Below, piece by piece: positions 8,185 to 62,976 of a stretch of 64,000 nt of DNA. The position numbers were made by a program, and so were the translations under genes. Numbering within the stretch: position 1 is the stretch's first letter; each line of letters starts with the position of its first letter. Below the pieces are notes generated by a model. The model made no database searches. It saw nothing but the letters and a program-made list of their open reading frames with translations, and had not been told where the DNA came from. The DNA is taken from positions 579,316 to 643,315 of the forward strand of contig JAFMSR010000015.1 of NCBI GenBank assembly GCA_022818135.1, read 5' to 3'. The DNA is from Saxidomus purpurata (lineage: Eukaryota > Mollusca > Bivalvia > Venerida > Veneridae).

Positions 8185-8580
8185 TCTTCACGGTAGCTCA
8201 TTTGGCGAAACAAATCAAATACGGTGTGGCAATGAAACGATTGAAGGACAACAGAAAGGGACAACTGGTTTCACGGTAGCTCACTTGTCATAACAGATCA
8301 AGTACGGCGTTGCAATGAAATGATAAGGGACAACAAAAAGGGACAACTAGTTTCACGGCAGCTCACTTGGCGAAACAAGTCAAGTACGATGTAGCCATGA
8401 AACGATTTAGGGACAACAAAAAGGGACAACTAGTTTCACGGTAGCTCACTTGGCGAAACAAATCAGAACGATGTGGCAATGAAACGATTGAGAGACAAAC
8501 AATTTTGGTGACGTCATAGCGCATAAAATTAAAGAAAACTGAGGGACAACCAAAAGAGACAACTGGTTTCACTGCAGCTC
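8185..8580 (+). repeat. Rep-derived tandem array (about 5 units of ~80-85 bp)
   Basis: Units share TTTCACGGTAGCTCACTTGG, GAAACAAATCAAGTACGATG, TGGCAATGAAACGATT and GGACAACAAAAAGGGACAAC. The Rep-like gene has the related run GGACAG...ACTTGGCAAAAACCAATCAAG, then TACGACGTAGCAATGAAAC, in its motif-1 region. One unit still encodes KYDVAMKRFRDN in one frame. The array ends about 40 bp before the Rep ATG, so it occupies the expected 5' regulatory zone. Confidence 0.75.
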
Positions 8581-8620
8581 ATTGTTAACGATAGATAAAG
8601 CTGCCGTTCTACATTTTACT

Positions 8621-9688
8621 ATGCCACGCAGAGATACTACAGCAAAGAGACACTGTGTTTTCTGTGAACAAGACATTTGTGTCGCTGTATGGGCGAGACA
8701 TTGTACAACTCAAAAGCACAAACGGAATGAACGTAAAGATGTCTCTAGTGTTAATGTCGGACCAGAAAAACACACACCACAAGCTTCTGGCAAAGGACAG
8801 CTCTTCTTTTGTACTTGGCAAAAACCAATCAAGTACGACGTAGCAATGAAACTTCAACACGATGTCAGGACAAATCCCATTCAGAACCACTTCATAGCCT
8901 GGGTTGTATGCAATGAATGGGGTGCAGATTTATTAGAACCCAATGGGCATTCCCATGGAATACTTAAGTCAAGAGTGAAATTAAACTTTGAAGAACTCCA
9001 ACAACTACTATGTGCAATGAAAATACCTCGCGCCGATGATCTATCTCGTGTAAGAAATTTGCGCGAGGCCATTAGGAACTGCACCAAAGAAGATCACAAA
9101 GCTGTTGTACAAGCATTTGACAAAGACTTAACTTCAGTATGTTACAAAGCATATCGTCATGCTGAAGCCACAGACATATTCTCATGGAATCATTACCCAG
9201 CAAGAAACATCGCTGCTCAAGACAGAAAGATGTACAAAGAACACTTTGATGCCTTCATACGTGATAAAGACAACATGATCGCTGCCTTAGAATTTGAGAC
9301 ATACAATCTACGACCCTTTCAAAAAGTTATCCTCAAACAAGTGTTATCTCAAACAGACAGAACTGTAACTTGGATTTGTGACAAGAACGGACACACTGGT
9401 AAGACCTGGTTAGCAAAATACATGAAGGTCAAACACAACGCTTATCTTGTAGAAAAACGAAAGAAGGCAGACATCATATCAGGCTACAGAGGCGAACCCG
9501 TAGTTGTGTTTGACTTCACGAGAAAAAACGAAGACTACATCAGTTACAGTGTCATAGAGTCATTCAAAAATGTACTTTGTCTAGCTAACTTTATGCCTGA
9601 CAGAGAGAAACTATCTAAAGACAGATGGGACATCCGGTCTGCAATAACTATTGACAATGTCGCTCATATTGTTAGTATGATACAATAA
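8621..9688 (+). CDS. Rep-like protein: zinc finger + HUH-like + SF3 helicase
   Basis: A single intact 355-aa frame from the first ATG at 8621; the frame opens at 8582 but has no earlier ATG. In order: (1) a C-x2-C-x11-H-x5-H finger (C12, C15, H27, H33) of U1/matrin type; (2) a motif-1-like LFFCTW around residue 62; (3) an H-x-H motif, GHSHGIL (H110, H112); (4) Walker A, NGHTGKT (256-262); (5) Walker B, PVVVFD (293-298); (6) motif C, ANFMPD, then LSKDRW (322-336). The ANxxPD...LSxDRW run resembles the SF3 helicase motif C of nanovirus/alphasatellite-type Reps, which start rolling-circle replication. A canonical Y-x-x-K nicking tyrosine is not evident, so the nuclease may be degenerate. An AATAAA overlaps the stop. 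It is either an integrated CRESS-like or plasmid-like element or a domesticated copy. Intronless, and convergent with the RING gene. Confidence 0.82.
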   Translation: MPRRDTTAKRHCVFCEQDICVAVWARHCTTQKHKRNERKDVSSVNVGPEKHTPQASGKGQLFFCTWQKPIKYDVAMKLQHDVRTNPIQNHFIAWVVCNEWGADLLEPNGHSHGILKSRVKLNFEELQQLLCAMKIPRADDLSRVRNLREAIRNCTKEDHKAVVQAFDKDLTSVCYKAYRHAEATDIFSWNHYPARNIAAQDRKMYKEHFDAFIRDKDNMIAALEFETYNLRPFQKVILKQVLSQTDRTVTWICDKNGHTGKTWLAKYMKVKHNAYLVEKRKKADIISGYRGEPVVVFDFTRKNEDYISYSVIESFKNVLCLANFMPDREKLSKDRWDIRSAITIDNVAHIVSMIQ

Positions 9689-10290: not shown

Positions 10291-11106
10291 TTACATCAAT
10301 ATTGTAACATCAGTAGCAACGTTGCACTGTAAGCAAATTCTATCACCGTTGTGCTCCTGCAACATTTTATTGAAATAAGGCATGAAACAGGACACACAAC
10401 AGAATCTATGTCCGCAAGAGCCAATTACTTTCGGTGGGTTAGATAGTGGAGAACCATGACACCATTTACATTGAGGTATTTGTTCTATGCGATTTCGCAC
10501 ATTATCTATGACAGAGTTCCATGATTCCAACGAAGATAACATATCCTGACGGATACACTGATCGTTGTTATACTTGTCAATTGCAGCTGACATCTGCTGT
10601 TGTATATTCAACAAATCTCCAAGCTTTGTTGAAAGTTCATCATAAGTCGTTTTGTTTTCCTCGATTTGAGAAAGATGAATTTCTTTGGCTTGTTGTCTCC
10701 TCGCATTTTCCTGTTGATCTTCTACGTTTGTTTTCTTCTCCTGGGTCAATGACAGTGCTTTTGAATCTGGCGTCGTATTTTTGTTCGGAGTTTTCTTTGC
10801 TTGCTGAAATTGATAAAATGAAATAAGTACATAGTCAAAACTCTATCAAACAATCCTCGATACAAGTAACCTCAACAAAGATGAAATTCAGGAACAGTAC
10901 TATACCTTTTTCTTCCCGTTTGTAGTTTCTTTGATACTTGTTGCTGCGTGTTTCCTTTTGCTGGTCTGATTATTCTCAGTTATTCCCGAAGTTTTTATCG
11001 GTAGTGTGCCATTGTCTAGTGGGTATTCCGTACCCAAATTAAACATATCGTTGCCAAGTGACAAGACTGTATAGTCGTAATACGGATTTGGCATGTTGTA
11101 AGTCAT
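10291..11106 (-). CDS. Two-exon coiled-coil/RING-finger protein
   Basis: Exon 1 is 11106-10906 (67 codons from ATG). The donor is AAG|GTATAG. A 102-bp intron ends in a pyrimidine-rich ATCAATTTCAG acceptor. Exon 2 is 10803-10291, phase 0, giving a 237-aa protein. The N-terminus is low-complexity and Lys/Thr-rich (KRKH, NGKKK: possible nuclear signal). Residues ~88-175 are Gln/Glu-rich and likely coiled coil. The C-terminus is a C3HC4-type RING: C179, C182, C197, H199, C203, C206, C224, C227. RING proteins usually act as E3 ubiquitin ligases; substrates cannot be read here. The gene converges on the Rep-like gene inside shared repeats, so it may be cargo of the same element. RING proteins are also common in large invertebrate DNA viruses, but no such identity can be claimed. 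Confidence 0.72.
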
Positions 11107-25046: not shown

Positions 25047-25659
25047 ATGGACGTACAGACAGAATATTATATACGACTCCTGCTACTCCTTGTAAAAGGA
25101 GGGATGCAGGTGTGTAAAGCCATCATTCTCAGAGAGCTAGAAGGCCTCGGACTTGATGTCGTCCTGAAGCCACTTGAACCAGCCTTGAAAAAGAAACTTT
25201 TAAAGTCACAGTATATCGTACTTTTTCCGAAAGTCGGGACACCGGATGTTGAAGACCTTGACATTTCTCTGTTAACAGTCGTTCTTCTTAATGTGTTAGT
25301 CCTTTCAACAACTGACGCACAATATATCAAGGTCATTAAACAAACCAGGAACAAACTGGCACATAACACTGTAGCATCCATCGACCAAACCGAGTACACC
25401 AAGACAAATACAGATCTAGAAGATGCATTGACTAAGCTGACTGAAGGACTTGACACAACTCTGCAGAAAGAATGTTCTGAGCTGATTCAAAAGTATACAA
25501 CTGAACCGCTAGATGAGATGACGATAATCAAACACGTGAAGGAATTAAGGAACGATGACGAGTTGCTCCATGATTTTGAAGAAATATTGGAAAAGCAGTC
25601 CACAGACATCAAGCACGAAATAAAGGCATCTGAGAGCCGAATGCATGAATCGCTATCAG
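25047..25659 (+). CDS. HEPN exon of paralog 1 (exon with ATG)
   Basis: This exon encodes residues 1-204. The catalytic HEPN signature R-N-K-L-A-H (R101, H106) is intact, matching R-x4-H with the usual polar residue after Arg. The helix-rich region around it (QYIKVIKQTRNKLAH) resembles the HEPN domain of DZIP3/hRUL138 proteins. It ends in phase 1 at CAG|GTTTGT. If the donor is ignored, the frame continues 29 codons (to 25748) with a hydrophobic tail, giving a 233-aa alternative product. Confidence 0.85.
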
Positions 25660-28600
25660 GTTTGTCCATCTTCTTAATTTTTAGATTCTTTTCAAGAAAT
25701 GTCATTACTACTTGTATGTTAAAAGACTTGCTTGCAGTTTTATTATGAAAAATAGTGAAATGTTGATGTAACGTGGTTCGCTACCGTCTGTCACAATTGT
25801 AAGTTTGTTAGCTCATCTGAGCATGAAATGTTCAAGGTGAGCTATTGTGAGGTATGTCTTGTCAGGTATGTCTGCCTGTCAATATTTATTCTTGTGTATG
25901 CAATAGACGGCTGTGTTTTTCAGAAGATCGTCATGAAACTTGGTCAGAATAGATGTCTAGGTCGAGTTTGAATATGGGTCGTCTTGGGTTAAAAACTAGG
26001 TCTCGAGGTCAAATTATAGAAAAACCTTGTGTATGGAATAGAGGTTGCAGTTTTCATTGGAGCTTCATGAAACTTGGTCATAATGACTGACTTGATGAAA
26101 TGCAGTTCGAGGTTGAATCTTGGTCATCTAAGGTAAAAACTAGGTCATCCGGTCAAATCATAGAAAAACCTTGCGTATGCTATGGAGTCTGCATTATTCT
26201 CTGGAACTTCATGCAATCTAGCCAGAATTACTGCCTTGATAAAATCTAAGTCAAGTTCGAATATGGGTAATTTCGGGTTAAAAACTAGGTCACCAGATCA
26301 AATTATAGAAAACCCTTGTGTGTGCCATAGAGGTGACATTTACGATCCAATCATCATGGACAATTGTTCACACTGTTTTTCAATGATTTCTAGGCAAAGT
26401 TCGAATCTGTGTTATCTGAATCCGAATCTGGTTACCTGTGGCACGGTCAGATAAAAGAAAACCTTGTTAACACTCTAGAGGTCGGATTTATTACCCAATC
26501 AACATCTGGAAATTGGACATAATCTTTATCGCATTGAGTTCTGTATCAAGTTTGAATCTGAGTAATCTTGGGTCAAAAACTATGTTACACAGTCAAATCA
26601 AAGGAAAAACTTTTTAACACTCTGGCGGTTTCAGGTGAGCGATATAAGGCCATCTTGGCCCTCTTGTTTCTTTATCATGTATCATTTTCAAATTTTGTGA
26701 CCTGATTTCGAAATAATTTGGATATTCCAGTAACAAGTCATTGGCTTTGTTTTGAAACTAAATAAGAGGGTCAATAGATACATGTATCAAGCTTTAGCAA
26801 GAAGCAAAGAACTGGAACATTTATTGTCACACAAAGTTAGTCCTCCATTGATATATTTGCCTTTATTTAACTCGTGAATTTGTTCAAAAAATCGAGTGTG
26901 CAGTCAAATGACAATCATTTTCTTAAATTGAATAAACTGAAAGAGAATGTGTGATCACTACAGCAGAGCCAATATTAAATAATATAAATCATTTTTAATA
27001 AATGTGGACGTATTCCCATGCTCATAGGCAGGTTGAATGCAGACAGTTACCATTAGTTACATTTTTTGTGTGTTACTGTGAAATATACGTATATTTTTCC
27101 TACGTTAAATAAAACATTGAACAATTTCGTTTCAATTACAGATGTCCGGGAAAATATAATTGATGCAATTCAGAAACTTCAACGAGGTAAAAAAATCTTT
27201 TTATTTTATGCTTTTCAGTGAAATACTGAAATATATCAGTGAAATAAAATTGGTATTACACTGTTTCAAAGTAGTGAAAATATAATTTTTATTTTCACTG
27301 TTTTTGCCGAACTACTTTTTAACCTCATTCTAAACAAAAGGCCCATATTTTCACACCAAGAATCTCCAGGTCGTCATCCATACAAAAGTTTCATACACAT
27401 GATTGACAGTGAGTGATTAATTACGTTAAAATACTTAGCTTTATCCAATTTCTCACGTATGAGATACATATTCCCCCTCATTTATCGGTGATAGAACTTT
27501 CTTAGTTAGATCATTTTCTATCCATCTGTAGCAATTTTGAATAAAAATTTGAGAAAAATTTGATTTTCTTTTTTTCACCACCATCCAATTTTCACAGTAG
27601 TTTCTTATACTTGTATGATCATGATCTGAAACCTATAAGTCACCTATAAAAAGTGGAAAACTACCTCTACAATCGCTCATTATTCACAAATGCATTAAAT
27701 TGTGACAAATTTTGCACTTGGGTAAGCCCTGGACCGAGCATTATTTTAATGAATGAACAGCTGATTGAGTATTACGCCACGATTCATTGTGTGACGAAGT
27801 GCAGACTTATTTAATAAAAAAAATCAATTTAGGCCTATATCTAATGAATTGATGTTTCATTTTCGTTGTATGATAAAGATAGATATGACTTCTTAAATAC
27901 TTTTATCTGAAATAATCAAAATATTTTGAACTACTTTTGTTGCGTTTTCAGTAATGATGGTAGTAATCATTCTGGGGTTCTCCATGGGGAATAAGAAATA
28001 CTATAATTCCAAATTTTACCGAATATTTTGCCAATAAACATAAAAGAAAAAGAAAATATGTTTGTTTCAGTGAAATATCAATTTTATTTCTTTCGTGAAC
28101 ACCAAACAAATAAACAAAGGAAAGACAAATGTTTGGTTTTCACTTGTGAAATAAAATTGATATTTCACTGAAACAAACAAATATCCTCTATATATTAATA
28201 TCAGTAATTAAAATGCACTATTTATGTTATTTAGATATTTTTATATGCATGTAAATTATATTTCAAGAGTTAACATTTTCTAGATAAGTGGTTACGATGG
28301 CAACAAACATTGTTTACTGTTTGACAAAGTAAGTTAAAGGATTAATATATTTTTACATTTGTCTTTCCTCTAGTTTGGTATACAGTATTATGTAACATTA
28401 TAATATCAATAGCATGTTCCATTTTTTATCAAATGAGATTTATTTTCTTTTTAAAGTGACATTATGCGCATCTTACTGCACATAGTGTATTTTTGGTGAC
28501 AGTTTTATAAAAGCAATTTTTGGTTGCTGTTCATTTAAATGTGTTAAATTAATGATTATGCCGCATTAGTATTTGAAGTTGGTGCTTTAGATATAAAAAA

Positions 28601-31600
28601 TCGGACTGATAAAATGATAGTTGATTGTGTCTTGGTAGAGATTTCGGCAGTGGAAGGGAAGCAACTCCTGCATGCAGTTGTTCTTTTCTTAAATTGACTC
28701 TCCCAGTCAAATAAGAAAATCAATATTTTGAAAGTTATTTTTTCATACTGATAGCAGGAAGAGTTTGGTGTATTGGGTTAAAAGTTATTATTTTCTCTGC
28801 ACTTTTGTACACACACCATTTTCAGCTGGATCTTTACTTGAAAAAAAATGCGCATAATGTCACTTTAAGAACCACATATGTCTTTCTTTTCAATAGCATT
28901 TGCTGTGATTTTATAATTTTGCTTCCACTGTCATATATGATATAACACTATATTCAAAGGACCACAATGGAATTAAGAGTTTATCCATACTCTTTTTTAA
29001 GTAATCCTTTGCATATAATGTTAATTGATATGGCAATAATTATTCATGCATGTTTGTTACTTGTTTATTGTGTTTTAATTATGTATTGCCATGCAATTGT
29101 ACATTTCATGCAGAATTCTAACATGCCTATACTATATTTCTATAGTCAATTCGAGTGCTTTAATATGATTAAAGCACTCGGGAAAGTAGGCGGAGTTTCG
29201 GACCTGGAAGTAGCTCCCTCCGACTTTTCTAATTTACTCCCGCGCAGAAAAATAAAATATAGAAATAGAAATAATATCTGTACAAATACATCAGTCGCAT
29301 GAGATAGTTGGGATTAAGAACCTAAATATTTTTTGTGGTTGCGACAGTTAAGCATTAGAATACCTTCACCTTGTTTTCCTTTAAAAAGGCCAAAAAAAAT
29401 TCAGGATTAACCGTGACGCAGTGTTTTGATTCTGGGTGACAAAACAATGTTTAAAAACGTTTACGTCATCACAATGAAGTCATTACTCTACGTTAAAACA
29501 TTGTACAGCTAAGTTTAGCTATATGCATTTAAATCGATTGTCTGCTTTGTAAGGTTCTAAACTCTGACGTCTTCTGCATAATGTCACGGTCAGGTATTTA
29601 ATTTATTCTATATATTAGATGATACAACTGAAATAAGTGTGTATAATAATGCTATGTATGATATCTTGAACGGTTGCCCGAATATTGGTCCAGGAGTGAA
29701 TTCCAACAGCCACTATTTATGCCAATTTACACATTTCCGCCGAACTGAAAAAAGATCCGTAGAACTTACGATAGTTTTCATAAATTCGGCTTATAAGAAT
29801 CGAAATAATCTATGGCTTGAAGTGCTTTATCAAAATTGAAGCATTTTATGAAAACTATCGTAAGTTCTACGGACCTTTTTTCAGTTCCTTATTTCCTTAT
29901 TTCCTTCTTTCTTAAATAAATCTATCCATCTATCTAACAGAAAATAAAAGTCCATTTGTCACAAAACAAGACTATTAAGAAAATCATCGTAATTTCTATG
30001 CCTTTAATGCCAAAATATCAAAATCAAATATGATTTGCAACGCGACAAAGGGGCCCTTAAGATGGTGACTACGTAATTTTGAGATGATGACCTAACAATA
30101 GCAGACACCATTAAGAAATAGTTCAAATCCAGTGCACAAACTACTGCATTGTTATACACTTTTAAAAACTATCCAAAGTAAAAGTGGTCCTTTTACGGTA
30201 TAAAAAGTTTATACCATGTCAAAGAGTACTATCAAAGTACAGCACAGTACTAAAAGCACTACATAAACATTACAACAGTTCCATAGAGTTTTGTTCGAGT
30301 ACTGCAGTACAATAAGTACTTCAGAATTATACTGCGCTATACAGTAGTATACTAGACTACGGTCTAAAGAGAACTTCAGCACTTTACCATATTTCACTAC
30401 TGCAGTACTTTACACTAATAACGTTCTGTGGAACCGAAAGTTCCATATAATAGTACTGCAACTGTTCATAAATGTACTTTGATAATATACAGAACTATAG
30501 TACTGTACTACAATACTATTCAGTACTAAAAGTACTACACTTATACAGAGTACTACAATACTAGTAGAGTGGTTCTCTAGAAAGATTGTTCCAAATTTGT
30601 CACTTGCATCAAATTGTCCCGCCCTGGAGTCTCCTAATTGATATATACTTTCCCTATAAATATCGCTTGAATTATATTTTTGAAACAATGCATCAGGTTG
30701 TTTGTGCAAACTGTTCAGTTAACTGCGGTGGTGCAGAGGTAAAGATGTCTGCCGCTCATCCCGGAGGTTGCGGGTTCGAGCCCCACAAGGGTCACGCCCG
30801 TACCTTCTCACATGACACCAGTACTGTTCTTTTCCAGGAAGCGGACTCGAAGGTGACTACAAGCTACAAGCTTTCTTCACAATCGAGCTAAAATAAATAG
30901 GTATAAACTAATTAACCGAGCTATTTCATGAGTTTATTCTGAAAGGGCAATACAATAATTGTGACGTCTCACGGAAAAATCTACGCAGTTCCTTGTAATT
31001 ATGGGTCTTTTGTATGTATGGAAAGATAACAAATGTCACAGCGAAGAAGAAAAAAGAAAATGATTTTAGGAGTTTTAAGTTTTTACAGTCACATTTTAAT
31101 GCACTATCAACTTCATTCAAATTCTTACTGGTATCCCTCCATAAAGTCGCTAAATTTCTGTCAATAATTCGTACATTTGTAAAAACAGCAAATACATAAT
31201 TTCTCTTTTTTAATAAGTGTTACATCATAAGTCTTATAAGTAAAAATAATGCAGTACTTTGACACTTACATCTGATACTTATAACAAACTGTAAGGCGAG
31301 TGCATTCAGAATCTAGTCACTTTGACGAAAAACGCTGACGACGTTAGGTTCATGTCTAAAAACGTAGTTTTGTGTCGACCTTTGGCCAAAGTAGATGGAT
31401 ATAGAGAAAGGAAAATTAATTTGTGTGTAAACATAGCATAACACTTAAAAAAACACACAATACTAAAAAAGTATTTTTTTCCATAAGGACCATTTTCTCA
31501 CGTTGTAATAAATATGTATGTTAATCATAAAGTGTATTTATTATGCATTATTCAGGACAAAGCTCAGAAGAGTCCCTTCATCACAAAATCACTGGTAGTA

Positions 31601-33207
31601 TACCGGAATGTGAGTCGTGTTGTCTAGGTAACAGTGCTAACACATCATCGTGGTATTGTGAATTCTGTTCCACTTTTGCTTGTTTTGAATGCAAAAAATG
31701 CATGCATACCAGTGGCAAAAAACACAAATGCCATCGCATAATGAAAGGTGAACCGATAACATTAGACATGAATGGCCTCAATATGTGTGATTCACACAGT
31801 AAAATTCTTTTATATTTTTGTGTAAAAGACGAGAGACTCTGTTGCGAGAGATGTCTAGATGAGCGACATGAACAATGCCAAAATATCGTTTCCATTTCGG
31901 ACATTAATGATGGATCAACATTTAATCCTTCACTTGAGATATTAAGTTTTCAAAATGAAGCCAAACAAATGATAGCGTGGACTGATTCCATTACAAAAGA
32001 TCTTAATAAGGAAATCGAAAATATACCATCATACCTAGAAAAACAGAGAAATACTGTCTTAGATCTGTTTGACCGCGAAGCGCAAACATTGAAAGCGAAA
32101 GCAAATACAATACAAAGTACTACATTAAAATACATACAAGAAAATCATAAATACTGTGAAAATTTCATAGAAAATATTGAGTTTGCCAAACGTTCACTAG
32201 TCCACATGGCTAAATTCGGTTCAAGCGAACAAAAATTCATTGCTAAATTACGAACGAGGGAGTTTCAGGAAAAGGTTAAGCTACTGACAAGTATAAGCGT
32301 ATTTATTTGTAATGTTGTAGAGGAGCGAATGTCTGGTCTAAGTTTACGTCAATCTGAAGCACTGTCAATACAAGTGAAATCTCCGGACATAGCGCCTGTA
32401 AAGCTGTTTCAGGCAGCTTCAGTGGAATTGAAACAGAGTGAAGACGACGAAAAGATGCCATTTTACACAGGAATGGACTTTCTTCCAGATGGTAGACTGG
32501 TTGTTGCGGATAATTACAACAAGAAATGTTTGATTTTCGATGAGATGATGGAGAAAGTAGGATCGTATCAGTTATCGTATAATCCACATAGTGTTATTGC
32601 TGTATCTGAAGTGGAAGTAGCAATTACAAGTGGCAGTCAGTGCAAGATATACTTTTTACGTGTCAGTAAATCGAATGAAATAATTCTAATAAGGCAATGT
32701 GAAGTAAAGACACAGTATTGCTCTATAATTATGCGAGATGGAGGACATTTTGTCGTTGGAACTATCGATGATGAAAGACCTGCTCGTATTGTTTCTCTCA
32801 CAGGTGTAGAGAAAGATTTCAATATAAACTTTCCAGACAAGAAATATCCTATAGGTACCAGTGCTTGTACATACATAAGAAACTGTGACAAAGTGGTCCT
32901 GACAGACAGAAATGAGCATACTGTCTATATATATGACGTCGCAACTAAACCCGAAATGGTTGTAAAAGACGTCCAGATCCAGGAACCTAGAGGTGTAGCT
33001 GTTGGACCATTTGATCGTCTATTTGTCTGCAGCAGGGCAACTGACAGCATAGTACAGCTTTCTCATACAGGGCGTATCATAACATCACACAAGTTAAATA
33101 TGAAATTTCCATACAGGATATGTGTTTCAAAGGACAAAACCCGAATAGCCGTCTCAAACTCTCACATTGATCAGAAAATTTTGCAAGTGTTCAATATAGC
33201 ATTTTGA
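25047..33207 (+). CDS. HEPN-B-box-coiled-coil-NHL-like protein, paralog 1
   Basis: Coding exons are 25047-25659, 27142-27186 and 31556-33207, giving 769 aa. All junctions are GT-AG and phase 1 (CAG|GT, GAG|GT; ACAG and TCAG acceptors). The first coding exon opens at an acceptor (ACAG|GTGATGGAC), so a 5' UTR exon lies upstream. Domains: DZIP3-type HEPN (~1-140), linker, microexon, B-box1 (238-276), B-box2 (297-327), coiled coil (~352-460), NHL-like beta-propeller (~520-769). This is TRIM-like, but the RING is absent and a HEPN domain takes its place. HEPN domains often cleave RNA; B-box/coiled-coil parts oligomerise; propellers bind protein or RNA. An innate-immune or RNA-decay role is inference. 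The tandem paralog is at 53937-59038. Confidence 0.88.
25810..26669 (+). repeat. Dispersed bivalve-type repeat inserted in intron 1 of paralog 1
   Basis: About five ~145-bp diverged units carry GTCATCT..GGTAAAAACTAGGTC, TCATGAAACTTGGTCA and AGAAAAACCTTGTGT. The left end is TTAGCTCATCTGAGCA and the right end GGCCATCTTGGCCCTCTTGT. Paralog 2 lacks the whole block: its intron runs directly through the equivalent TTTCTTTATCAT sequence. The insertion therefore postdates the gene duplication, or was cleanly lost in copy 2. It is the same family as 1425-2700, opposite orientation. Confidence 0.8.
27142..27186 (+). CDS. 45-nt microexon of paralog 1
   Basis: Fifteen residues (VRENIIDAIQKLQR plus split codons) between TTACAG| and GAG|GTAAAA. 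Being a multiple of three and in phase 1 on both sides, it can be skipped without a frameshift. Paralog 2 has the same 45-nt exon (55187-55231; VQENIMDAIQKLQI). The peptide is amphipathic and may extend a helix between HEPN and B-boxes. Confidence 0.82.
28455..28864 (+). mobile_element. TTAA-flanked MITE, copy B, in intron 2 of paralog 1
   Basis: A 410-bp element between TTAA duplications (28451-28454, 28865-28868). Perfect ends AGTGACATTATGCGCAT and inverted ATGCGCATAATGTCACT. The interior matches copies A and C. Absent from the corresponding intron of paralog 2. Confidence 0.92.
29153..29181. repeat. Perfect 13-bp hairpin
   Basis: CGAGTGCTTTAAT and its exact reverse complement are separated by three bases. 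It lies in intron 2 of paralog 1 next to a GC-richer patch (29185-29245). Confidence 0.8.
29742..29887. repeat. 43-bp inverted repeat in intron 2 of paralog 1
   Basis: The left arm GAACTGAAAAAAGATCCGTA, then GAACTTACGATAGTTTTCATAAA, is mirrored on the right as TTTATGAAAACTATCGTAAG...CAGTTC with about one mismatch and a ~60-bp loop. It is probably a small foldback element; the transcript would form a strong hairpin. Confidence 0.85.
30225..30575. repeat. AGTACT-rich block, intron 2 of paralog 1
   Basis: The palindrome AGTACT and half-sites GTACT/AGTAC recur dozens of times over 350 bp. The block is shared, in the same orientation and order, with intron 2 of paralog 2 (56045-56420), so it predates the duplication. 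Confidence 0.8.
30723..30899 (+). mobile_element. tRNA-derived SINE, family 1, plus strand
   Basis: A tRNA-like head with a box-A-like GGTGGTGCAGAGGTAAAG and a perfect box B, GGTTGCGGGTTCGAGCCCC. The body contains CACATGACACCAGTACTGTT and the tail AATCGAGCTAAAATAAATAG. A sister copy lies on the minus strand at 59921-60063. Confidence 0.72.
31261..31410 (+). promoter_or_regulatory. Conserved intronic block upstream of exon 3, paralog 1
   Basis: About 150 bp ending ~145 bp before the exon-3 acceptor is nearly identical to 57109-57258 in paralog 2, although most surrounding intron has diverged. The core is ACGCTGACGACGTTAGGTTC, then ATGTCTAAAAACGTAG. It could be a splicing or transcriptional element, an internal promoter for a HEPN-less B-box/NHL transcript, or a trace of recent gene conversion. 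Confidence 0.5.
31556..33207 (+). CDS. B-box/coiled-coil/NHL exon of paralog 1
   Basis: A single 1652-nt exon. B-box1 ligands are C238, C241, C254, C257, C262, C265, H270 and H276. B-box2 ligands are C297, H300, C308, D311, C316, C319, H324 and C327. The propeller begins near FYTGMDFLPDGRLVVADNYN and has repeating YIYDV- and GVAVGPFDRLFVC-type strands typical of NHL-like repeats. A methionine at 31543 just before the acceptor is intronic, not a start. Confidence 0.88.
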
Positions 33208-40015: not shown

Positions 40016-40948
40016 GGAAGTAGGCAGTAGCAGTAGCTCAGCAGTAGGAAACGTGAAGTTGGCAGTAGCAGTAGCACAGCAGTAGCAGTAGCTCAGCAGT
40101 GGCAGTAGCTTAGCAGTGGCAGTAGCTTAGCAGTGGCAGTAGCTTAGCAGTAGCAGTAGAAAAATTATAAAACGTGAAGTAGCAGTAGCTAGCAGTAGCA
40201 GTAGCATAGCTCAGCAGTAGCAGTAGCACAGCAGTAGCACAGCAGTAGCAGTAGCTCAGCAGTAGCAGTAGCAGTAGCAGTAGCAGTAGCTCAGCAGTAG
40301 CAGTAGCACAGCAGTAGCAGTAGCTTAGCAGTAGCTCAGCAGTAGCAGTAGCACAGCAGTAGCAGTAGCAGTAGCTCAGCAGTAGCAGTAGCACAGCAGT
40401 AGCAGTAGCAGTAGCAGTAGCTCAGCAGTAGCAGTAGCAGTAGCAGTAGCACAGCAGTAGCAGTAGCACAGCAGTAGCAGTAGCTTAGCAGTAGCAGTAG
40501 CAGTAGCAGCAGCTCAACAGTAGCAGTAGCACAACAGTAGCAGTAGCTTAGCAGTAGCAGTAGCTTAGCAGTAGCAGTAGCAGTAGCAGTAGCAGTAGCA
40601 CAGCAGTAGCAGTAGCACAGCAGTAGCAGTAGCTTAGCAGTAGCAGTGGCAGTAGCAGTGGCAGTAGCAGTAGCAGTAGCTTAGCAGTAGCAGTAGCTTA
40701 GCAGTAGCAGTAGCAGTAGCACAGCAGTAGCAGTAGCACAGCAGTAGCAGTAGCTTAGCAGTAGCTTAGCAGTAGCAGTAGCAGTAGCACAGCAGTAGCA
40801 GTAGCACAGCAGTAGCAGTAGCTCTGCAGTAGCAGTAGCACAACAGTAGTAGTAGCTCAGCAGTAGCACTAGCAGTAGCAGTAACTCAGCATTAGCAGTA
40901 GCTCAGCAGTAGCAGTAGCAGTAGCAGTAGCTTAGCAGTAGCAGTAGA
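40016..40948 (+). repeat. Compound (CAGTAG)n / AGCTTAGCAGT satellite array
   Basis: About 930 bp of AGCAGT hexamers broken by AGCTCAGC, AGCACAGC and AGCTTAGC spacers. Two interruptions carry AACGTGAAGT (about 40050 and 40165), the second with AAAATTATAAAACGTGAAG. The same interruption recurs inverted in the 44990-45422 array. Leu/Cys/Tyr-rich frames across it are artefacts of the repeat. Confidence 0.95.
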
Positions 40949-44987: not shown

Positions 44988-45422
44988 AGCTACTACTACT
45001 GCTAAGCTACTGCTTCTGCTGAGCTACTGCTACTGCTACTGCTACTGCTCAGCTACTGCTACTGCTACTGCTACTGCTGTGCTACTGCTACTGATACTGC
45101 TGTGCTACAGCTACTGCTACTGCTGTGCTACTGTTACTGCTGTGCTACTGCTGTGCTACTGCTGTGCTACTGTTACTGCTGTGCTACTGCTACTGCTAAG
45201 CTACTGCTACTGCTGAGCTACTGCTACTGCTGAGCTACTGCTACTGCTGTACTACTGCTACTGCTGTGCTACTGCTACTGCCAACTTCACGTTTTATAAT
45301 TTTGCTACTGCTACTGCCAAGCTACTGCTACTGCTGTGTTACTGCTACTGCTAAGCTACTGCTACTGCCAACTTCACATTTTTAATATAGCTACTGCTCA
45401 CTGCTACTGCTCACTGCTACAC
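44988..45422 (-). repeat. Compound CTACTG satellite array, inverted relative to 40 kb
   Basis: About 430 bp of CTACTG hexamers with GCTGAGCTA, GCTGTGCTA and GCTAAGCTA spacers, the exact complement of the 40-kb array. Interruptions GCCAACTTCACGTTTTATAA (about 45280) and GCCAACTTCACATTTT (45369) are the complement of those in the first array, so both descend from one sequence. Confidence 0.95.
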
Positions 45423-47204
45423 ATAAAATAAAGTGTTATTACAGAAATTCGGTCCGTCCAAAATTCATACCAACTTATTTATAGGCCCTTCACTCGGAAG
45501 ACTGTCATGCATACGGGTACAATTATTTTGAAATAATCGCTGAATGATAGATCACAAATGAAATATGAAGAGAAAAATCTGGTTATAAATTTTAATTAAA
45601 ATATTTGGTACATGTATTTGAAAATACTGACATATTTGGTCGGTGACCACTAAAACTGCCACGTAAATGGGGGTGGTGTCATTCAGCTCCAAATTACTGG
45701 CATAAAGTATTGGATCACATGTATAAATTTTGTTATTTTTATGTGGGACTAGGATGATTCTACAAAATAAAGTGCATTTCAGCAGTCTATGTGATTTTGG
45801 GTAGTCGCACCGGCAGAAAACCTTATACTGTAAGTCTATGGAAATGTATTTAGGCTACTTATACCTAAAGTCTGATTAACTTAAAACACAGAATGTCTAA
45901 AATATTTACATACATGTACATGACTGGTTAGAAGACTATTTTATGTCACTAAAAGAAGAAGTGATATGAACAGCATAACAAGAGAATTAATGGAAATATA
46001 GGCCCGATTATTTTCCTATGGTCGTAAGCGCGTGCCAGGTTAGGCTAGCAATCTTTACACATTAAAAAGGAGATCTAGTGGCCGATCTTTCTTTTGCGTG
46101 CGAAGGTATCAATGCCACTGTCGGCAATGATCTCTTGATCTCTGTGTACTTGCATCAACCCCTATCCGGACATCCTGTCAGTGGACATGGTAGTTCTTAA
46201 ATATGTTTTGAGCCTTTGCAGGCTGTTAAAATTACGACTGGCAATAGTTTCTTCAAACAAAACTATAGCTCTTTAGTACTCCATTTTGAGCGCTGTATTA
46301 TTGCAAGTTCATTTCAAATTTGCAATCTGAAAACACAAGTTTGCGAGAACTGTAAATCAGGTTTGATTTCCTTGACATTAACCTCCATCTCTAGTTCACA
46401 TTTTGACGTCTTGGATTTGAGCAGTTAAATCTATTTTAATTGAGCTTTTAAAATCTTACTTAGTAATTGAACAGAATTTCACAGAATATATCATGATATA
46501 ATAGTATACCAAGACAATAGGGAAATATAAACCCTTACAAAAAATTATTATTTTTTCTGTCAGTCTCTCCAGCGTTATCAAGTCGCTCCTGCTTTATCGG
46601 GTTTATTCATTCGGGGTTTAAGTTATCATTTTCGTTTTACACAGTACGGCAAACAGAGTTGCTTCCCATCTATACGTGACGTGGCGTGACTTTGATAAGT
46701 AAAACTCGGTATTGCTCTCTGATCTAGAATATTCAATATAGCTTTACAACATTGAATACATGTGTAAGTACATAAATTAAATATTATTATTAGCATCTAT
46801 TGTTTTTTTTCTCATTTCCTAATAGATTAGTTCTAATGTGATATCGAAACTAAGCCACTTTAAACTTTTTTTTACCTGACACTGTTTACATGTATAAAAT
46901 CAAAAGTTAATATTATACTAGTTTAATCGTTTATTAATTGATATTAACAAGTGTTTGATAGATTTCCTATTTCTTAATGCTTATATTGGCTTAATTTACC
47001 GTACACATTGAAGGGATAGAGATTATGGGAGTCCTGAAAGCTATAATTAGCAAATTGGAGGGATACCATGACATAACGTTATATTTTATACACTATCAGC
47101 GCTTGGAGATAGCTTTAGACCTACTTATTAACGATAACTTTATAACAAGGCAGTATGGAACGCCATAGCTGCCTTCCATATGATGAGGTCCTTTTGATAT
47201 AGGG
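45423..47204. other. Gene-free AT-rich interval
   Basis: No supported gene. 46020-46190 is GC-richer (GCGCGTGCCAGGTTAGGCTA) without an open, spliced frame. Confidence 0.5.
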
Positions 47205-47690
47205 TGCTGTAAGTTTGATAGATGGTGCTGTGGTTTTGATAGATGGTGATGGGGTTTTGATAGATGGTGCTGTGGTTTTGATAGATGGTGCTGTGGTTTT
47301 GACAGATGATGCTGTGGTTTTGATACATGGTGCTATGGTTTTAATGGATGATGCTGTGGTTTTTATAGATGGCGCTGTGGGTTTGATACATGGTGCTGTG
47401 GTTTTGATACATTGTGCTGTGATTTTGATAGATGGTGCTGTGGTTTTGATAGATGGTGCTGTGGTTTTGATAGATGGTGCTGAGGTTTTGATACATGGTG
47501 CTGTAGTTTTGATAGATGGTGCTGTGGTTTTGATACATGGTGCTGTGGTTTTGATACACGGTGCTGTGGTTTTGATACGTGGTGCTGTGATTTTGATATA
47601 TGGTGATGTCGTTTTGATAGATGGTGATGTCGTTTTGATATATGAAGATGTCGTTTTGATAAACGGTGCTGTGGTTTTGATTAGTGATGT
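47205..47690 (+). repeat. 21-bp minisatellite, about 22 units
   Basis: Units are variants of GGTGCTGTGGTTTTGATAGA. Because 21 is a multiple of three, all frames are repetitive and open (VLIDGAV on the plus strand, NHSTIYQ on the minus). Variants (GATACA, GATATA, GGTGATGTC) increase toward the right end. It should not be annotated as a gene. Confidence 0.95.
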
Positions 47691-48377: not shown

Positions 48378-48578
48378 TAGTTTTGATAAATGGTGATGTG
48401 GTTTTGATAGATGGTGCTGTGGTTTTGATAGATGGTGATGAGGTTTTGATAGATGGTGCTGTGGTTTTGATTAATGGTGGTGTGGTTTTGATATATGGTG
48501 ATGTCATTTTGATATATTGTGCTGTCATTTTGATATATGGTGCTGTCATTTTGGTATATGGTGCTGTCATTTTTGGAT
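48378..48578 (+). repeat. 21-bp minisatellite, second plus-strand array (about 9 units)
   Basis: Same unit as the 47205-47690 array. Terminal units drift to GATATATGGTGCTGTCATTT. Confidence 0.93.
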
Positions 48579-53936: not shown

Positions 53937-54549
53937 ATGGACGTAGAGACAGAATATTATATACGACTCCTGCTACTCCTTGTCAAAGGAGGGATGCAGG
54001 TGTGTAAAGGCATCATTCTCAGAGAGCTTACAGGTCTTGGACTTGATGTCGTTCTGAAGCCACTTCAGTCAGTATTGAAAAAAAAACTTTTAAAGTCACA
54101 GTATATCGTACTTTTTCCGAAAAGTGGGAAACCAGATGTTGAAGACCTTGACCTTTCTCTGTTAACTGTCGTTCTTATTGATGTGTTAGTGCTTTCAACA
54201 ACTGACGCACAATATATCAAGGTAATTAAACAAACCAGGAACAAACTTGCACATAACACTGCAGCGTCCATTGACCAAACCGACTACACAAAGACAAAGA
54301 CAGACCTAGCAGATGCTTTGGCTAAACTAGCTAAAGGACTTGATACAACTATGCAGAAAGAATGTTCTGAGCTGATTCAAAAGTATACAACTGAACCGCT
54401 AGATGAGATGACGATAATCAAATACGTAAAGGAATTGAGGAACGATGATGAGTTGCTGCAAGATTTTGAAGAAATATTGGAAAAGCAGTCCACGGGCATC
54501 AAGCAGGAAATAAAGGCATCTGAGAGCCGAATGCAAGAATCGCTATCAG
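53937..54549 (+). CDS. HEPN exon of paralog 2
   Basis: Residues 1-204, start ATG three bases after the acceptor. If the donor is not used, the frame runs to 54638 and gives 233 aa, the same length as the paralog-1 read-through. Its hydrophobic tail (ILFLDFF, then IITTCVLQKLLAVLF) is similar to that of paralog 1. Confidence 0.85.
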
Positions 54550-57500
54550 GTTTGCGAATCATTTTATTTTTAGATTTTTTCAAGAAAAATATTATTACTA
54601 CATGTGTGTTACAAAAGTTGCTTGCAGTTTTATTTTGAAGGTCTACTAGCAAGAATAATATGTAACGTAGTTCGTTGTTACGTCTTACCGTCCGTCGCAG
54701 TTTTAAGTGTTTTCTTTATCATCTATGGTTTTCAAATTTTGTGAATTAATTTCAAAATAATTTGGATATCGCAGTACCCAGTAATTGGTTATGTTTTGAT
54801 ACTTAATTAGAGGGTCAAGAGATATCGAGGTTAATCAATAAACTAATACAGTTCCAGAACATCTATTGTATCACAATGTTAGAGTTGCTTTTAATTTCCT
54901 TGTGAAATTGCTCGAATAACCGAGTGTGCAGACAAAGACAGCCATTTTCTTAAATTGAATAAAATAAACTGAAAGAGCATGTTTTGTGATACAGCAGATC
55001 CAATATCAAATAGTACAAATTATTTGTATTAAAATGTAGACTTTTTCCCCTGTTCATATACAAGTTGAATGCAGATAGTTATCATTGATTGCATATATTT
55101 GTGACCATTGTTACTGTGAAATATACGTACATGTATAGTTTTCCTATGTTAACTCAAACTTTGAACACTTTTCTTTTCAATTGCAGATGTCCAGGAAAAT
55201 ATAATGGATGCCATTCAAAAACTTCAAATCGGTAAAACTATTTATATTACAAGCAGTTTATGAATTGCACTAGTTGTGCCATTTACATATTTAATATGCT
55301 TGTTAATCACATTTCAAGAGTTAAAGAAGCTGGCCTTCGAGAAGTTGTTACGATGACAACAAAAAGTGTTTGACAAGGTAACATAAAATAAGTGTTAAAA
55401 GTTCAACTTCAAGCAAGACTTTGTAAGTAAATCGTCCTAATTTATATGACTTTAAGTGCAAAAAATAAAAAGTCTGATATGATATATAACGCGTAAAGGG
55501 GTCCTTAAGACGTAGACTGCTTAAGCGTGAGATGATGATCTAACGATAGCAGGCGTTACTTTGGCGTTGTGTCTTGTCAAGGACACAAAAGCCACCCATT
55601 ATATGTTGTTTGTTTTATAGTGTGTTTTATTTTACTCTAAACTAGCATCTATATTCTTACAAGAAAATGCTAATTAATATTTGAATTATTCAAATGCCGT
55701 CCTACAAATTTATTCAAATTTCTGAAAAGAAAGTACAAAAAGAGAGCTTTTTCAAATGTAAAGAAAAGGTGAGTACCTTAATTTCGTGTGCGCATGTAAA
55801 ATGGTGATAATATATAAATAGTTGTATTTGTATTTCAAGATTTGTTTGCCAAAATGTTTGTATAAAGTACATTACTTGCTAAAACATCAATAAATGGTTC
55901 CGGTCCAGTGCACAAAATGATACTTAAATTAGGAAAGTCTTTAAACGGTTTTTTCTCATGAAGCATGTAGTGGTAACTTTGAAGTACTGTTGTACAATGC
56001 AGTAGTATATGGTATCAATCATTCAATGGTTCATACAATATCATCATAGAGTACTACCAAAGTACAGCACAGTACTAAAAGCACTACATAATCATTATAA
56101 TAGTACCATAAAGTTTTACTGTACTATACAGTTCTACAGTACAATAGGTACTACTGCACTATACAGTATTATAATATTATAAAGAGAACTCCAGTATTTT
56201 ACATTTAGTCTACTACAGTACTTAACACTTAGTGTACTAAAGTTCTATGGAGTCTAGAGTACTATACATTTCTATAGAACCCTACTGTAACTGTCCAGAA
56301 ATGTACTACGATAATATACAGAACTATAGTACTGCGAAGGACTGCAATACTATTCGATACTAAAGAGTACTATAGTTAAATAGAGTTTCATAGAGAACTG
56401 CAATACTAGTACAGTGGTCCTCTAGAAATATTGTTCAAAATTTGCTCTTGTATAAAATATGGTCCCATCCTGCGGTCCATTAATTGATATAGACGCTTCA
56501 TATATTTGCCACCTGAAAATATGCATTAGGTTGTTTATTAAATCGTGATACGCCCAAGGCGTATCGTGACACCCCTATTGTTTATGTCACGCAAAACTTA
56601 CAAACTGTTCAACTAACCACGCTATTTCGTGAAGGTTTAGTTAGAAAGGGCAATAGAATAATTGCGACGATACACGTTTTAAGAAAACAGAAGAATACAA
56701 GAAAACGCTTTTGGGAGTTTTAACTTTTTACAGTGACATTTCTTATTGATATCCTTCAACACAGTGGCTAAATTTCCTGCCTAGAATTCCTAACAACAGC
56801 AAATATATATAGATTCTCCTTTAATTTATACTAATTTATTTATTCTCGATTGCGAAACCAATTCTTACAACTTACATTAATCGCTCTCGAGACTCATTCC
56901 ACATGGAATCAACTTCAGAGAGAGAGAGGCAATGTGAAATTATTTGTGTCTTGCCTAAGGACACTACCGACATGGCGATGTTAGGGATCGCACCCGGGAT
57001 CCTTCGATCCTGAGTCGAACGCGCTATCACTGCGCCACGGCGGCTCCACCTCCTTTTTAATGAGTGTTACATTATGAGGAATTTTTATTTTAAAAAATGT
57101 AGTACTTTGACACCTACATCTGATACTTATAACCAACTGTGGCAAGTGCATTCAGAATCTAGTTACTTTGACAAAAAACGCTGACGACGTTAGGTTCATG
57201 TCTAAAAACGTAGTTTTGTGTCGATCTTTGGCCAAATCAGATAGATACAGAGAAGGGAATATCAAATTATTTGTAAATATAGCATATAACATTTTTATTT
57301 TTTAACATACTATTTTCAAAAGATTTATCGCCTTGTATTAATCATAACGATATAATAAAGTGCTTTCTTTATTACACATTATTCAGGGCAAAGCTCAGAC
57401 GAGTCCTTTCATCACATAATCACTGGTGCTTTACCTGACTGCGAGTCGTGTTGTCTAGGTGACAGTATTAATACAGCAACGTGGTATTGCGAGTTCTGTT

Positions 57501-59038
57501 CTAAATTTATCTGTTCTGACTGCAAAACATCCATGCATCCAAATGACAAAAAGCACAACCTCCAGCGCATAACGAAAGATAAACCGATAACATTAGAAAT
57601 GAATGGCCTCAATCTGTGTAACTCACACAACAAACACCTTTTACATCTTTGTAAAGAGGACGATAGTCTTTGTTGCGATAGATGCCTGGAGGAGCGACAT
57701 GAGCAATGCAAGAATGTTGTTTCCATTTCAAAAGTAGACAAAGAGTCAACATCCAACCCTACACTTGAGATTCTACGTTTGCAGAATGAAGCCAAACAAG
57801 TGACAGCCTGGACGGATTCCATTACAAAAGATTTAAATAAAGAAATTGAAAGTTTACCAGAACACTTAGAAAAACAGAGAAATGCTGTCTTAGATCTGTT
57901 TGACCAGGAAGCACGGATTATAAAAGATAAAGCAAATGCATTACAAAATAAAGCGGTGAAAGATATAACAATAAATCACATGCGCTGTGACAGTGTCATT
58001 GAGAAACTCGAGTTAGTCAAACGGTCACTGATAAATCTTGCTAAATGTGGATCAAACTCGCAAAAAGTGATCGCTAGATATCGGCTGAGGGAATTTCAGG
58101 AAAACGTTAAGCCGCTGACAAGTATAAACGTAGTTACTTGTAATCTTGTAGAGGAGCGTATGTCTGGTTCAAGTTTACGTCAATCTGAAGCACTGTCAAT
58201 ACAAGTGAAATCCCCGGACACAACACCTATAAAGCTGTTTCATACTGCTTCAGTGGTTCTGATACAGAGTGATGACGAAAAAAAGAAGCCATTTTACACT
58301 GGTGTAGATTTTCTGCCAGATGGTAGACTGCTTGCTGTGGATAATTTCAACAAGAAATGTTTGATTTTCAGCAAGAAGCTGGAGAAATTAGGATCGTATC
58401 AGTTATCGTATAACCCACAGAGAGTTGTTGTTGTATCTGAGGAAGAAGTAGCGATAACAAGTGGCGCACAGTACAAGATAGACTTTCTACGTGTCAGTAA
58501 ATCTAATGATATAACTCTAATAAGGACATGTAAAGTTAAGACAAAGTACAATTCTATATGTATGAAGGATGACGGGAATTTTGTCGTTGGGACTATCAAT
58601 AACACCAAACCTGTACGTATTGTGTCTCTGTCAGGGGAAGAGAAAGAATTCAGTATCAATTTCCCAAACAAGAAATATCCTATTGACGGTAGTTCTTGTA
58701 CATATATAAGAAACAGTGACAAAGTAGTTCTTACCGATAGATATGATCATACCGTCTATATATATGACGTCACAACCAACACCAGAGTCGTTGTCAAGGA
58801 CGATCAGATCAAGGAACCTAGAGGTGTAGCTGTTGGACCATTTGGTTGTCTCTTTGTCTGCAGCAGCAGAACTGACAGCATAGTACAGCTTTCTCAAACA
58901 GGACGTATCATAACATCACACAAGTTAAACACGGAATACCCAAACAGCATATGTGTTTCAAAGGACAAAACCAGAATAGCTGTCTCAAATAGTTCCACTA
59001 AACAGAAAAATTTGCAATTGTTCAATATTGTATTCTGA
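53937..59038 (+). CDS. HEPN-B-box-coiled-coil-NHL-like protein, paralog 2
   Basis: Coding exons are 53937-54549, 55187-55231 and 57387-59038, giving 769 aa with exactly the same exon lengths and phases as paralog 1. Acceptors are TTGCAG|GTG, TTGCAG|ATG and TTCAG|GGC; donors CAG|GTTTGC and CG|GTAAAA. HEPN R101-N-K-L-A-H106 is intact. By hand count the HEPN exon differs from paralog 1 at 24 of 204 residues. The first 61 residues of the last exon differ at 22, including most B-box1 loop positions, while all B-box1 and B-box2 zinc ligands remain. Introns are shorter (637 bp and 2155 bp). A 29-codon read-through tail past exon 1 is also open here. The likely role is as for paralog 1, with a possibly different ligand. 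Confidence 0.88.
56045..56420. repeat. AGTACT-rich block, intron 2 of paralog 2
   Basis: Orthologous in position to 30225-30575. Shared phrases include AAAGTACAGCACAGTACTAA and ATACAGAACTATAGTACTG. Confidence 0.8.
56547..56565. repeat. Perfect GATACGCC hairpin
   Basis: GATACGCC-CAA-GGCGTATC, an 8-bp perfect stem, GC-rich in an AT-rich intron; the flanking CGT/GTGAC adds imperfect pairs. Confidence 0.6.
56830..57048 (-). mobile_element. tRNA-derived SINE, family 3, in intron 2 of paralog 2
   Basis: The minus strand starts GAGCCGCCGTGGCGCAGTGA (box A). It has a perfect anticodon-like arm, TTCGA-CTCAGGA-TCGAA, and a box-B-like GGTGCGATCCC. An AT-rich tail contains GAATAAATAAATTAG. There is no counterpart in paralog 1. 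Confidence 0.75.
57109..57258 (+). promoter_or_regulatory. Conserved intronic block upstream of exon 3, paralog 2
   Basis: Near-identical to 31261-31410 and also close (about 130 bp) to the exon-3 acceptor. Its conservation against a diverged background is the only evidence for function. Confidence 0.5.
57387..59038 (+). CDS. B-box/coiled-coil/NHL exon of paralog 2
   Basis: 1652 nt, identical in length to the paralog-1 exon. B-box1: CESC, CEFC, CSDC and MHPNDKKH. B-box2: CNSH, then C..D, CCDRC and RHEQC. The coiled coil keeps SITKDLNKEIE and LEKQRN. The propeller keeps FYTGVDFLPDGRLLAVDN and GVAVGPFGCLFVC. The exon is open upstream of the first internal ATG (57533) back to the acceptor at 57387. 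Confidence 0.88.
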
Positions 59039-62715: not shown

Positions 62716-62976
62716 GTCAGCCCGGTTAGCTCAATCGGTAGAGCACGAGACTTGTAATCTCGAGGTAGCGAGTTCGATTCCCGGGGCTGACCAACTAAAA
62801 TTACTAACAGTCTTTCGGATATGACTTAAACCGAGGTCCCATGTGTGGGTGCTATACACCTGGCATGTTAAAGAACCAGGGGAGTCTCTGGAATTGGGAC
62901 ACTTTCTGTATCTTGTACTATCCTCCGAAACCTAAAATAACTAACCTCTTCTGGGGGCTTTGGTCATGTGGGAAAC
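62716..62976 (+). mobile_element. tRNA-Thr-like SINE, family 2, plus strand
   Basis: The head has a 7-bp acceptor-like pairing (GTCAGCC with GGCTGAC), D-arm GCTCAATCGGTAGAGC, a perfect anticodon arm CGAGA-CTTGTAA-TCTCG (anticodon TGT, threonine) and GAGTTCGATTCC. It is not a true tRNA gene: six bases instead of two separate acceptor and D stems, the T stem is broken, and a ~180-bp conserved body (GGTCCCATGTGTGGGTGCTA) is attached. Confidence 0.85.

What the first reader, a model, noticed from the sequence alone, without database searches (positions are those of the whole stretch)
25047..33207. RING-less TRIM-like protein with an apparently active HEPN domain
Reading the exons together gives HEPN - microexon - B-box1 - B-box2 - coiled coil - NHL-like propeller. 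TRIM proteins normally start with a RING; here a DZIP3-type HEPN domain occupies that place. The R-x4-H motif (R101-N-K-L-A-H106), which is catalytic in RNA-cleaving HEPN domains, is intact. A B-box/coiled-coil oligomer with a propeller sensor and an RNase-like head would be a plausible antiviral or RNA-surveillance effector (inference).
Basis: partly seen in the sequence, partly recalled or inferred. Interest (0 to 1): 0.8.

Follow-up and report, generated by a model that had tools for sequence, protein, structure and literature searches.

The report
TRIM-like protein with RNase-like head
In a clam-like mollusc genome, a gene related to TRIM immune proteins lacks the usual ubiquitin-ligase (RING) end and carries instead a domain resembling RNA-cutting enzymes, a combination that also occurs in other venus clams and suggests an untested RNA-attacking relative of TRIM proteins.

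Summary
Three exons (25047-25659, 27142-27186, 31556-33207) with GT-AG junctions give a 769-aa protein: DZIP3-type HEPN (Pfam E 1.5e-9, above cut-off), two B-boxes with all zinc ligands, a predicted long helix and a C-terminal NHL-like propeller. Eight annotated proteins of Mercenaria mercenaria and Ruditapes philippinarum join HEPN to the same downstream part, so the exon joining is right. R101 and H106 are intact in 11 of 11 such sequences. A 58-sequence AlphaFold model of the HEPN part is confident (pLDDT 90.8); its best structural match is Csm6, at a Z that for helical proteins is only supportive. The same chromosome carries a single-exon RING-B-box-coiled-coil-NHL gene and RING-less B-box-NHL exons, so HEPN sits where a relative has RING. 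No paper in my ten searches describes this combination. RNase activity and antiviral function are inference. Most likely: a propeller-targeted, clustering-activated RNA-cutting effector. New variant of a known kind; interest 0.6.

The parts
25047..25659 (+). Exon 1: HEPN domain (DZIP3/hRUL138-like) and following long helix, residues 1-204 (codon 205 split)
   Evidence: Pfam PF18738 E 1.5e-9; AlphaFold pLDDT 90.8; donor GT
25347..25364 (+). R-N-K-L-A-H motif, R101 and H106
   Evidence: translation; R and H kept in 11 of 11 B-box-joined sequences; R101 near the C-end of helix 88-105, H106 just after it
27142..27186 (+). Exon 2: 45-nt phase 1-1 microexon, extends the helix linker
   Evidence: AG...GT; aligned without gaps to the annotated clam proteins; counterpart 55187-55231
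31556..33207 (+). Exon 3: B-box1, B-box2, helix, propeller, stop
   Evidence: 558-aa open frame; acceptor AG
31609..31725 (+). B-box1, residues 238-276, C-x2-C-x12-C-x2-C-x4-C-x2-C-x4-H-x5-H
   Evidence: pattern; ligands invariant in 8 sequences
31786..31878 (+). B-box2, residues 297-327, C-x2-H-x7-C-x2-D-x4-C-x2-C-x4-H-x2-C
   Evidence: Pfam PF00643 E 4.4e-4, below cut-off in this copy; PF00643 above cut-off in P0006-P0009; pattern
31930..32286 (+). Predicted long helix / coiled coil, residues 345-463
   Evidence: model helices 345-440 and 443-463, low pLDDT; profile matches TRIM28 6h3a over 229-419, E 0.004
32383..33204 (+). NHL-like beta-propeller, residues 496-769
   Evidence: pLDDT of ten-residue blocks mostly 74-92, four of 27 at 51-68; Foldseek Brat, TRIM71, Mei-P26 NHL, TMt 0.69-0.72; Thin NHL E 1.7e-5 by sequence
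53937..54549 (+). Second copy, exon 1 (HEPN, 88% identical)
55187..55231 (+). Second copy, microexon
   Evidence: 7 mismatches of 45; frame holds
57387..59038 (+). Second copy, exon 3 (B-boxes, helix, propeller, stop)
   Evidence: 68% identical exon

Best explanation
This is a pair of RING-less, TRIM-like genes, 29 kb apart, in which a DZIP3-type HEPN domain holds the N-terminal effector place that RING holds in a related single-exon TRIM-NHL gene on the same chromosome. Proposed working: the propeller binds a target (RNA, or a ribonucleoprotein or viral protein), the B-box/helix part holds the protein in dimers, and clustering on a multivalent target brings HEPN heads from different dimers together; the paired Rx4H sites then cut RNA, giving antiviral or anti-transposon defence. 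Shown: gene structure, domains, conservation, the intact motif, a confident helical model, and the relatives. Inferred: dimer geometry, RNase activity, RNA as substrate, clustering as the switch, and defence as the role.
Confidence: 0.5

Rival explanations
1. The HEPN head is not an enzyme here but an RNA-binding or pairing module: it joins the protein to other HEPN proteins (for example the HEPN-NACHT receptors described in bivalves) and so recruits a B-box/propeller platform to a signalling complex.
For: This genome has at least 149 PF18738 matches; HEPN-NACHT proteins are abundant in pearl oyster (PMC9646362, passages); 14 of 49 related HEPN exons have lost R or H, all 14 without internal stops in the matched part.
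Against: R and H are kept in 11 of 11 B-box-joined sequences from three species, which a mere pairing module would not need; the sequences are related, so this is not 11 independent cases.
Confidence: 0.3
2. A RING-less TRIM that still works in the ubiquitin pathway or as a scaffold through its B-boxes and propeller, with HEPN as a passenger.
For: B-box-helix-NHL exons without RING or HEPN in the same exon occur repeatedly in this genome; humans have 6 B-box proteins without RING (PMC2533329, passages).
Against: HEPN is the most conserved domain and under the strongest constraint (dN/dS 0.25).
Confidence: 0.12
3. Gene-model artefact: the HEPN exon and the B-box exon belong to different genes.
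For: No transcript of this species was seen; intron 2 is 4.4 kb.
Against: Same exons, phases and order in the second copy and the same joined protein annotated in two other species; whether those annotations rest on transcripts was not seen.
Confidence: 0.03
4. A decaying or recently duplicated gene without function.
For: Some paralogous exons in this genome carry internal stops or are broken.
Against: Two intact copies, dN/dS 0.38 overall, conservation in two venerid clams.
Confidence: 0.05

Closest known systems
TRIM-NHL proteins (TRIM2, TRIM3, TRIM32, TRIM71/Lin41, Brat, Mei-P26, Thin)
   Same: B-box, helix and C-terminal NHL-type propeller in this order; NHL domains have the highest target-normalised fold scores among the rows shown; a RING-bearing member lies on the same chromosome (L068)
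   Different: No RING found; N-terminal HEPN instead; no filamin domain by Pfam
DZIP3/hRUL138-like HEPN proteins of animals
   Same: HEPN_DZIP3 above cut-off, R-N-x-x-A-H motif
   Different: Listed fusions are TPR, Zn-ribbon, RING, ankyrin, CARD, NACHT, DEATH and LRR (PMC3710099 Table 1 passage); B-box is not in that list
HEPN effector-sensor proteins of bivalves (HEPN-NACHT; HEPN-Ig-DED-TRADD-N with WD40)
   Same: N-terminal HEPN joined to a sensor such as a repeat or propeller domain (PMC9646362; PMC8195603; passages)
   Different: Those use NACHT or TRADD-N as the switch; here a B-box/helix oligomeriser takes that place (inference)
RNase L, Csm6, Cas13 (ligand-switched HEPN RNases)
   Same: HEPN with R-x4-6-H (recalled); Csm6 and Cas13bt3 among fold matches
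   Different: Different sensors; their activity is established (recalled), here it is not tested
RING-less 'incomplete' TRIM proteins (TRIM29 type)
   Same: B-box and coiled coil without RING (PMC2533329, passages)
   Different: TRIM29 has no HEPN and no NHL propeller (recalled)

Membership tests
TRIM (tripartite motif) family | RING at the N-terminus | tested here: not met
   No RING by Pfam in the protein; a RING pattern scan of frames of 40 aa or more in the window found one match only, at 10470 on the minus strand; an undetected 5' exon is not excluded
TRIM (tripartite motif) family | B-box1 and B-box2 with zinc ligands | tested here: met
   Patterns at 31609 and 31786, ligands invariant in 8 of 8, PF00643 in 8 of 8 at E<=0.05; last B-box2 ligand is C rather than H; homologue P0008 lacks B-box1 (sequence)
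TRIM (tripartite motif) family | Antiparallel coiled coil dimer | tested here: inconclusive
   Long helix predicted with low pLDDT; profile match to TRIM28 E 0.004; no dimer modelled
NHL propeller | NHL-type beta-propeller | tested here: met
   Model and Foldseek TMt 0.69-0.72 to NHL structures, though a Gbeta and a lyase propeller rank first by E-value; Thin NHL by sequence E 1.7e-5; Pfam NHL itself below cut-off in this copy (17.6 against 20)
HEPN_DZIP3 (PF18738) | Profile score above curated cut-off | tested here: met
   38.3 bits, second copy 41.3, cut-off 27
RNase-type HEPN | Intact R-x4-6-H | tested here: met
   R101, H106; 11 of 11 B-box-joined sequences
RNase-type HEPN | HEPN fold with motif at the end of a core helix | tested here: inconclusive
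RNase-type HEPN | Dimer with composite active site; RNA cleavage | not testable with these tools
   No complex prediction or assay available

The most novel reading that the evidence does not exclude
A family of HEPN-TRIM proteins in venerid clams in which RNA cutting has replaced ubiquitin transfer as the output of the TRIM scaffold: propeller binding clusters B-box/helix dimers, HEPN heads pair between dimers and become RNases only on the target, a TRIM-style counterpart of RNase L or Csm6 with a propeller sensor that may recombine among paralogues.
Probability: 0.33. Interest if true: 0.82.

Novelty: new variant of a known kind. Interest (0 to 1): 0.6.

Why it matters
If true, the TRIM scaffold is a general clustering platform whose output can be exchanged: ubiquitylation in RING TRIMs, RNA cleavage here. 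It would join two defence themes, HEPN RNases and TRIM sensors, in one polypeptide and give a simple test of whether HEPN activity can be switched by proximity alone. It would also name a concrete candidate for RNA-level immunity in clams, where DZIP3-type HEPN genes are numerous and their function is untested as far as I saw.

Tried and rejected
Chance or mis-joined exons: rejected by the second copy and annotated homologues. Hidden RING elsewhere in the window: by pattern in frames of 40 aa or more only one match, on the minus strand at 10470. Other HEPN relatives as B-box fusions: of 20 loci of about 10 kb fetched around the nearest HEPN exons (L011 cut off most of its exon), only L001 on C8 has a B-box exon downstream, with no propeller within the stretch; nine open frames downstream of HEPN exons and one HEPN frame scanned by Pfam gave no B-box. 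By eye, the HEPN lists and the B-box-exon list lie within 20 kb on one strand at three places only: both window copies and C8. These lists are lower bounds (150 of 193, 150 of 213 and 79 of 1160 candidates scored), and the list does not even contain the window's own two HEPN exons.

Propeller exchange: B-box/helix and propeller alignments reject each other's best tree (AU p 2.8e-7 and 0.0025), but a propeller tree keeping the HEPN-joined genes together is not rejected (AU p 0.138), so exchange between HEPN-joined and HEPN-less genes is suggested, not shown. The full-length 8-sequence model is poor outside the propeller (mean pLDDT 56.9). Foldseek on the HEPN model: nothing at E<=0.001; top rows TNFAIP8, Smac and a plant hemoglobin. 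Whether the aligned parts of Csm6, AbiF and Cas13bt3 are their HEPN domains I did not check. Profile A2 against PDB hit B-box, NHL and other chains because six of its 58 rows were full-length proteins; not used. Conservation of R/H in B-box-joined (11 of 11) against other HEPN exons (35 of 49) is not an independent-sample test, so I give no p-value; the 49 come from 59 other fetched loci, ten of which gave no match to the seed profile and were dropped.

Literature: ten searches in an open-licence PMC library. Twelve papers were looked into by word search only: passages seen in eleven (of PMC8905726 only a reference entry), no occurrence in PMC8917759. Others, such as PMC7773633, were seen as listings only. 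None described HEPN with B-box, coiled coil and NHL; subscription journals, figures and supplements were not seen.

Full report
What is there. On the + strand, exons 25047-25659, 27142-27186 and 31556-33207 join in frame, with GT-AG at each junction, into a 769-residue protein. Both introns are phase 1 and the 45-nt microexon is symmetric. Pfam gives HEPN_DZIP3 above its cut-off (E 1.5e-9), and a B-box, an NHL repeat and HEPN_Swt1 below theirs. Scanned over the 8-sequence alignment, HEPN_DZIP3 and B-box match in 8 of 8 members, SGL in 6 and NHL in 5 at E<=0.05. The zinc ligands of B-box1 (C238, C241, C254, C257, C262, C265, H270, H276) and B-box2 (C297, H300, C308, C316, C319, H324, C327) are invariant in the alignment; the aspartate at 311 of B-box2 is histidine in P0006. 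A sequence profile of the alignment matches TRIM28 over residues 229-419 (E 0.004) and the NHL domain of Thin over 659-727 (E 1.7e-5).

A second copy. The same window holds a second complete gene at 53937-54549, 55187-55231 and 57387-59038 with the same splice positions and a 769-residue product; HEPN is 88% identical, the third exon 68%. dN/dS between the copies is 0.25 (HEPN), 0.37 (microexon region), 0.41 (B-boxes), 0.36 (helix), 0.40 (propeller), 0.38 overall, which speaks for working proteins.

Homologues. Two searches with the whole protein (single sequence and 8-row profile) found the same 6 proteins, covering 98-100% of the query: five from Mercenaria mercenaria and one from Ruditapes philippinarum, 46-56% identical, named 'uncharacterized', with PF18738 precomputed in all six and PF00643 in four. 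A search with the HEPN part of P0001 added P0007 (Ruditapes) and P0008 (Mercenaria) with HEPN and B-box, and P0009 (Mercenaria), whose model starts after the HEPN core and has B-boxes (domains rechecked for P0006-P0009). P0008 has only one B-box by its sequence. Both species are Veneridae. It is probably neither of these two species, since no listed match other than the pair itself exceeds 46% for the HEPN exon.

The propeller. The 8-sequence full-length model is good only there (ten-residue blocks mostly 74-92, four of 27 at 51-68). Foldseek's 50 listed rows mix Gbeta/WD40, lyase and NHL propellers, with a Gbeta chain first by E-value; the highest target-normalised scores are NHL domains: Mei-P26 0.72, TRIM71 0.69-0.71, Brat 0.69-0.70. 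Several of these entries are RNA complexes by title (TRIM71 with Trincr1, Lin41 with lin-29A, Brat with RNA). That makes RNA a reasonable but untested ligand; the net charge of the propeller (0 to +10 over eight sequences) is not telling.

Where it came from. The genome has at least 78 match rows to the third exon, 35 of them on the window's own chromosome C15, the two window exons included and some genes counted in two pieces. Five further genes were read in full or in part (L061/L064, L062/L065, L063, L066, L067): all are B-box-helix-NHL exons without RING or HEPN in the same exon as far as read; an ATG shortly before the B-box was seen in the first three, the other two were fetched without their 5' end, and upstream exons were not examined beyond the short flanks. 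L068, also on C15, is a single exon with RING (PF13445 E 1.1e-8), two B-boxes, helix and propeller. L001 on C8 has a HEPN exon followed by a B-box-helix exon and no propeller within the 10 kb fetched. So a series exists: RING TRIM-NHL, RING-less B-box-NHL, and HEPN joined by splicing to the front of the latter; its direction is inference. HEPN-joined genes form a clade on the B-box/helix part (bootstrap 100) while the propeller gives a different tree; each part rejects the other's topology (AU p 2.8e-7 and 0.0025), but a propeller tree with the HEPN-joined genes together is not rejected (p 0.138). The window gene's propeller is 62-66% identical to those of HEPN-less L064-L066, whose B-box/helix part is only 20-21% identical, against 45% and 35% for Ruditapes P0006. 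Propeller exchange or gene conversion is a fair suspicion.

How it most likely works. HEPN RNases act as dimers with a shared Rx4-6H site, and TRIM proteins form antiparallel dimers that keep their two N-terminal heads apart and pair them on higher-order assembly (both recalled). Putting these together (inference): the propeller picks the target, dimers cluster, HEPN heads of neighbouring dimers pair and cut RNA. Context favours defence: DZIP3-type HEPN genes are expanded and tied to NACHT receptors in pearl oyster, where 194 of 202 keep Rx4-6H (PMC9646362, passages), are named among expanded families in a clam study (PMC11592408, passage), and recur in cnidarian receptors (PMC8260672, PMC10236652, passages).

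Known or new. The 2013 HEPN survey lists for DZIP3-type domains fusions to TPR, Zn-ribbon, RING, ankyrin, CARD, NACHT, DEATH and LRR (PMC3710099, passage). The 2021 study of TRADD-N proteins names HEPN, B-box and propellers among variable parts of bivalve proteins built around TRADD-N (PMC8195603, passages). The Mercenaria genome paper does not contain HEPN, DZIP3, TRIM or B-box as whole words (PMC8905726). The ten searches gave no description of this combination. The clam sequences themselves are in public databases, unnamed. I therefore call it a new variant of known kinds: TRIM-like by B-box, helix and NHL, not a TRIM by the RING criterion, and a DZIP3-type HEPN protein by profile.

Verdict (my estimates). 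The anatomy is secure (above 0.95); a working gene is very likely (0.9); RNase activity about 0.55; a defence role about 0.5; the clustering switch about 0.33.

Noticed in passing
window 8543-9688 (+): A 381-aa open frame matches PF00910 (RNA_helicase; 23.6 bits, cut-off 21.5); it looks like a relative of a viral Rep-type replication gene inside the animal genome (inference). Only described.
   Followed up: partly
window 10291-10842 (-): A 183-aa open frame ends in a RING-like C3HC4 pattern, though Pfam gave no RING match at E<=0.05.
   Followed up: no
window 40024-40947, 44989-45420, 47192-47681, 48380-48567, 50229-50835, 52066-53267: Large tandem arrays between the two HEPN genes: degenerate GCAGTA/GCTACT repeats, 21-bp repeats in both senses and a 156/456-bp repeat.
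   Followed up: no
window 62720-62788 (+) and 56973-57044 (-): Two Rfam tRNA matches above the gathering score that ARAGORN does not report; perhaps tRNA-derived repeats.
   Followed up: no
L063 (C15:1883702-1886500): A HEPN-less B-box-NHL gene whose B-box and propeller parts lie in different frames, so broken in this assembly.
   Followed up: no
HEPN exons L029, L035, L037, L038 (C17), L032, L034, L039, L040 (C6), L027 (C2372): Nine of the 14 HEPN exons that have lost R or H of the motif come from two groups of look-alikes with open frames, as if whole sub-lineages had turned non-catalytic.
   Followed up: partly
L002, L004, L005, L007, L010, L014, L018, L019, L020: HEPN exons followed within a few kb by open frames of 141-169 aa; of nine scanned, eight match no Pfam family at E<=0.01 and one only weakly and below cut-off; a possible unnamed partner domain.
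   Followed up: partly
window copies, HEPN exon against the rest: dS between the two copies is 0.22 in the HEPN part and 0.41-0.54 in B-box, helix and propeller, perhaps gene conversion of the HEPN exon.
   Followed up: no
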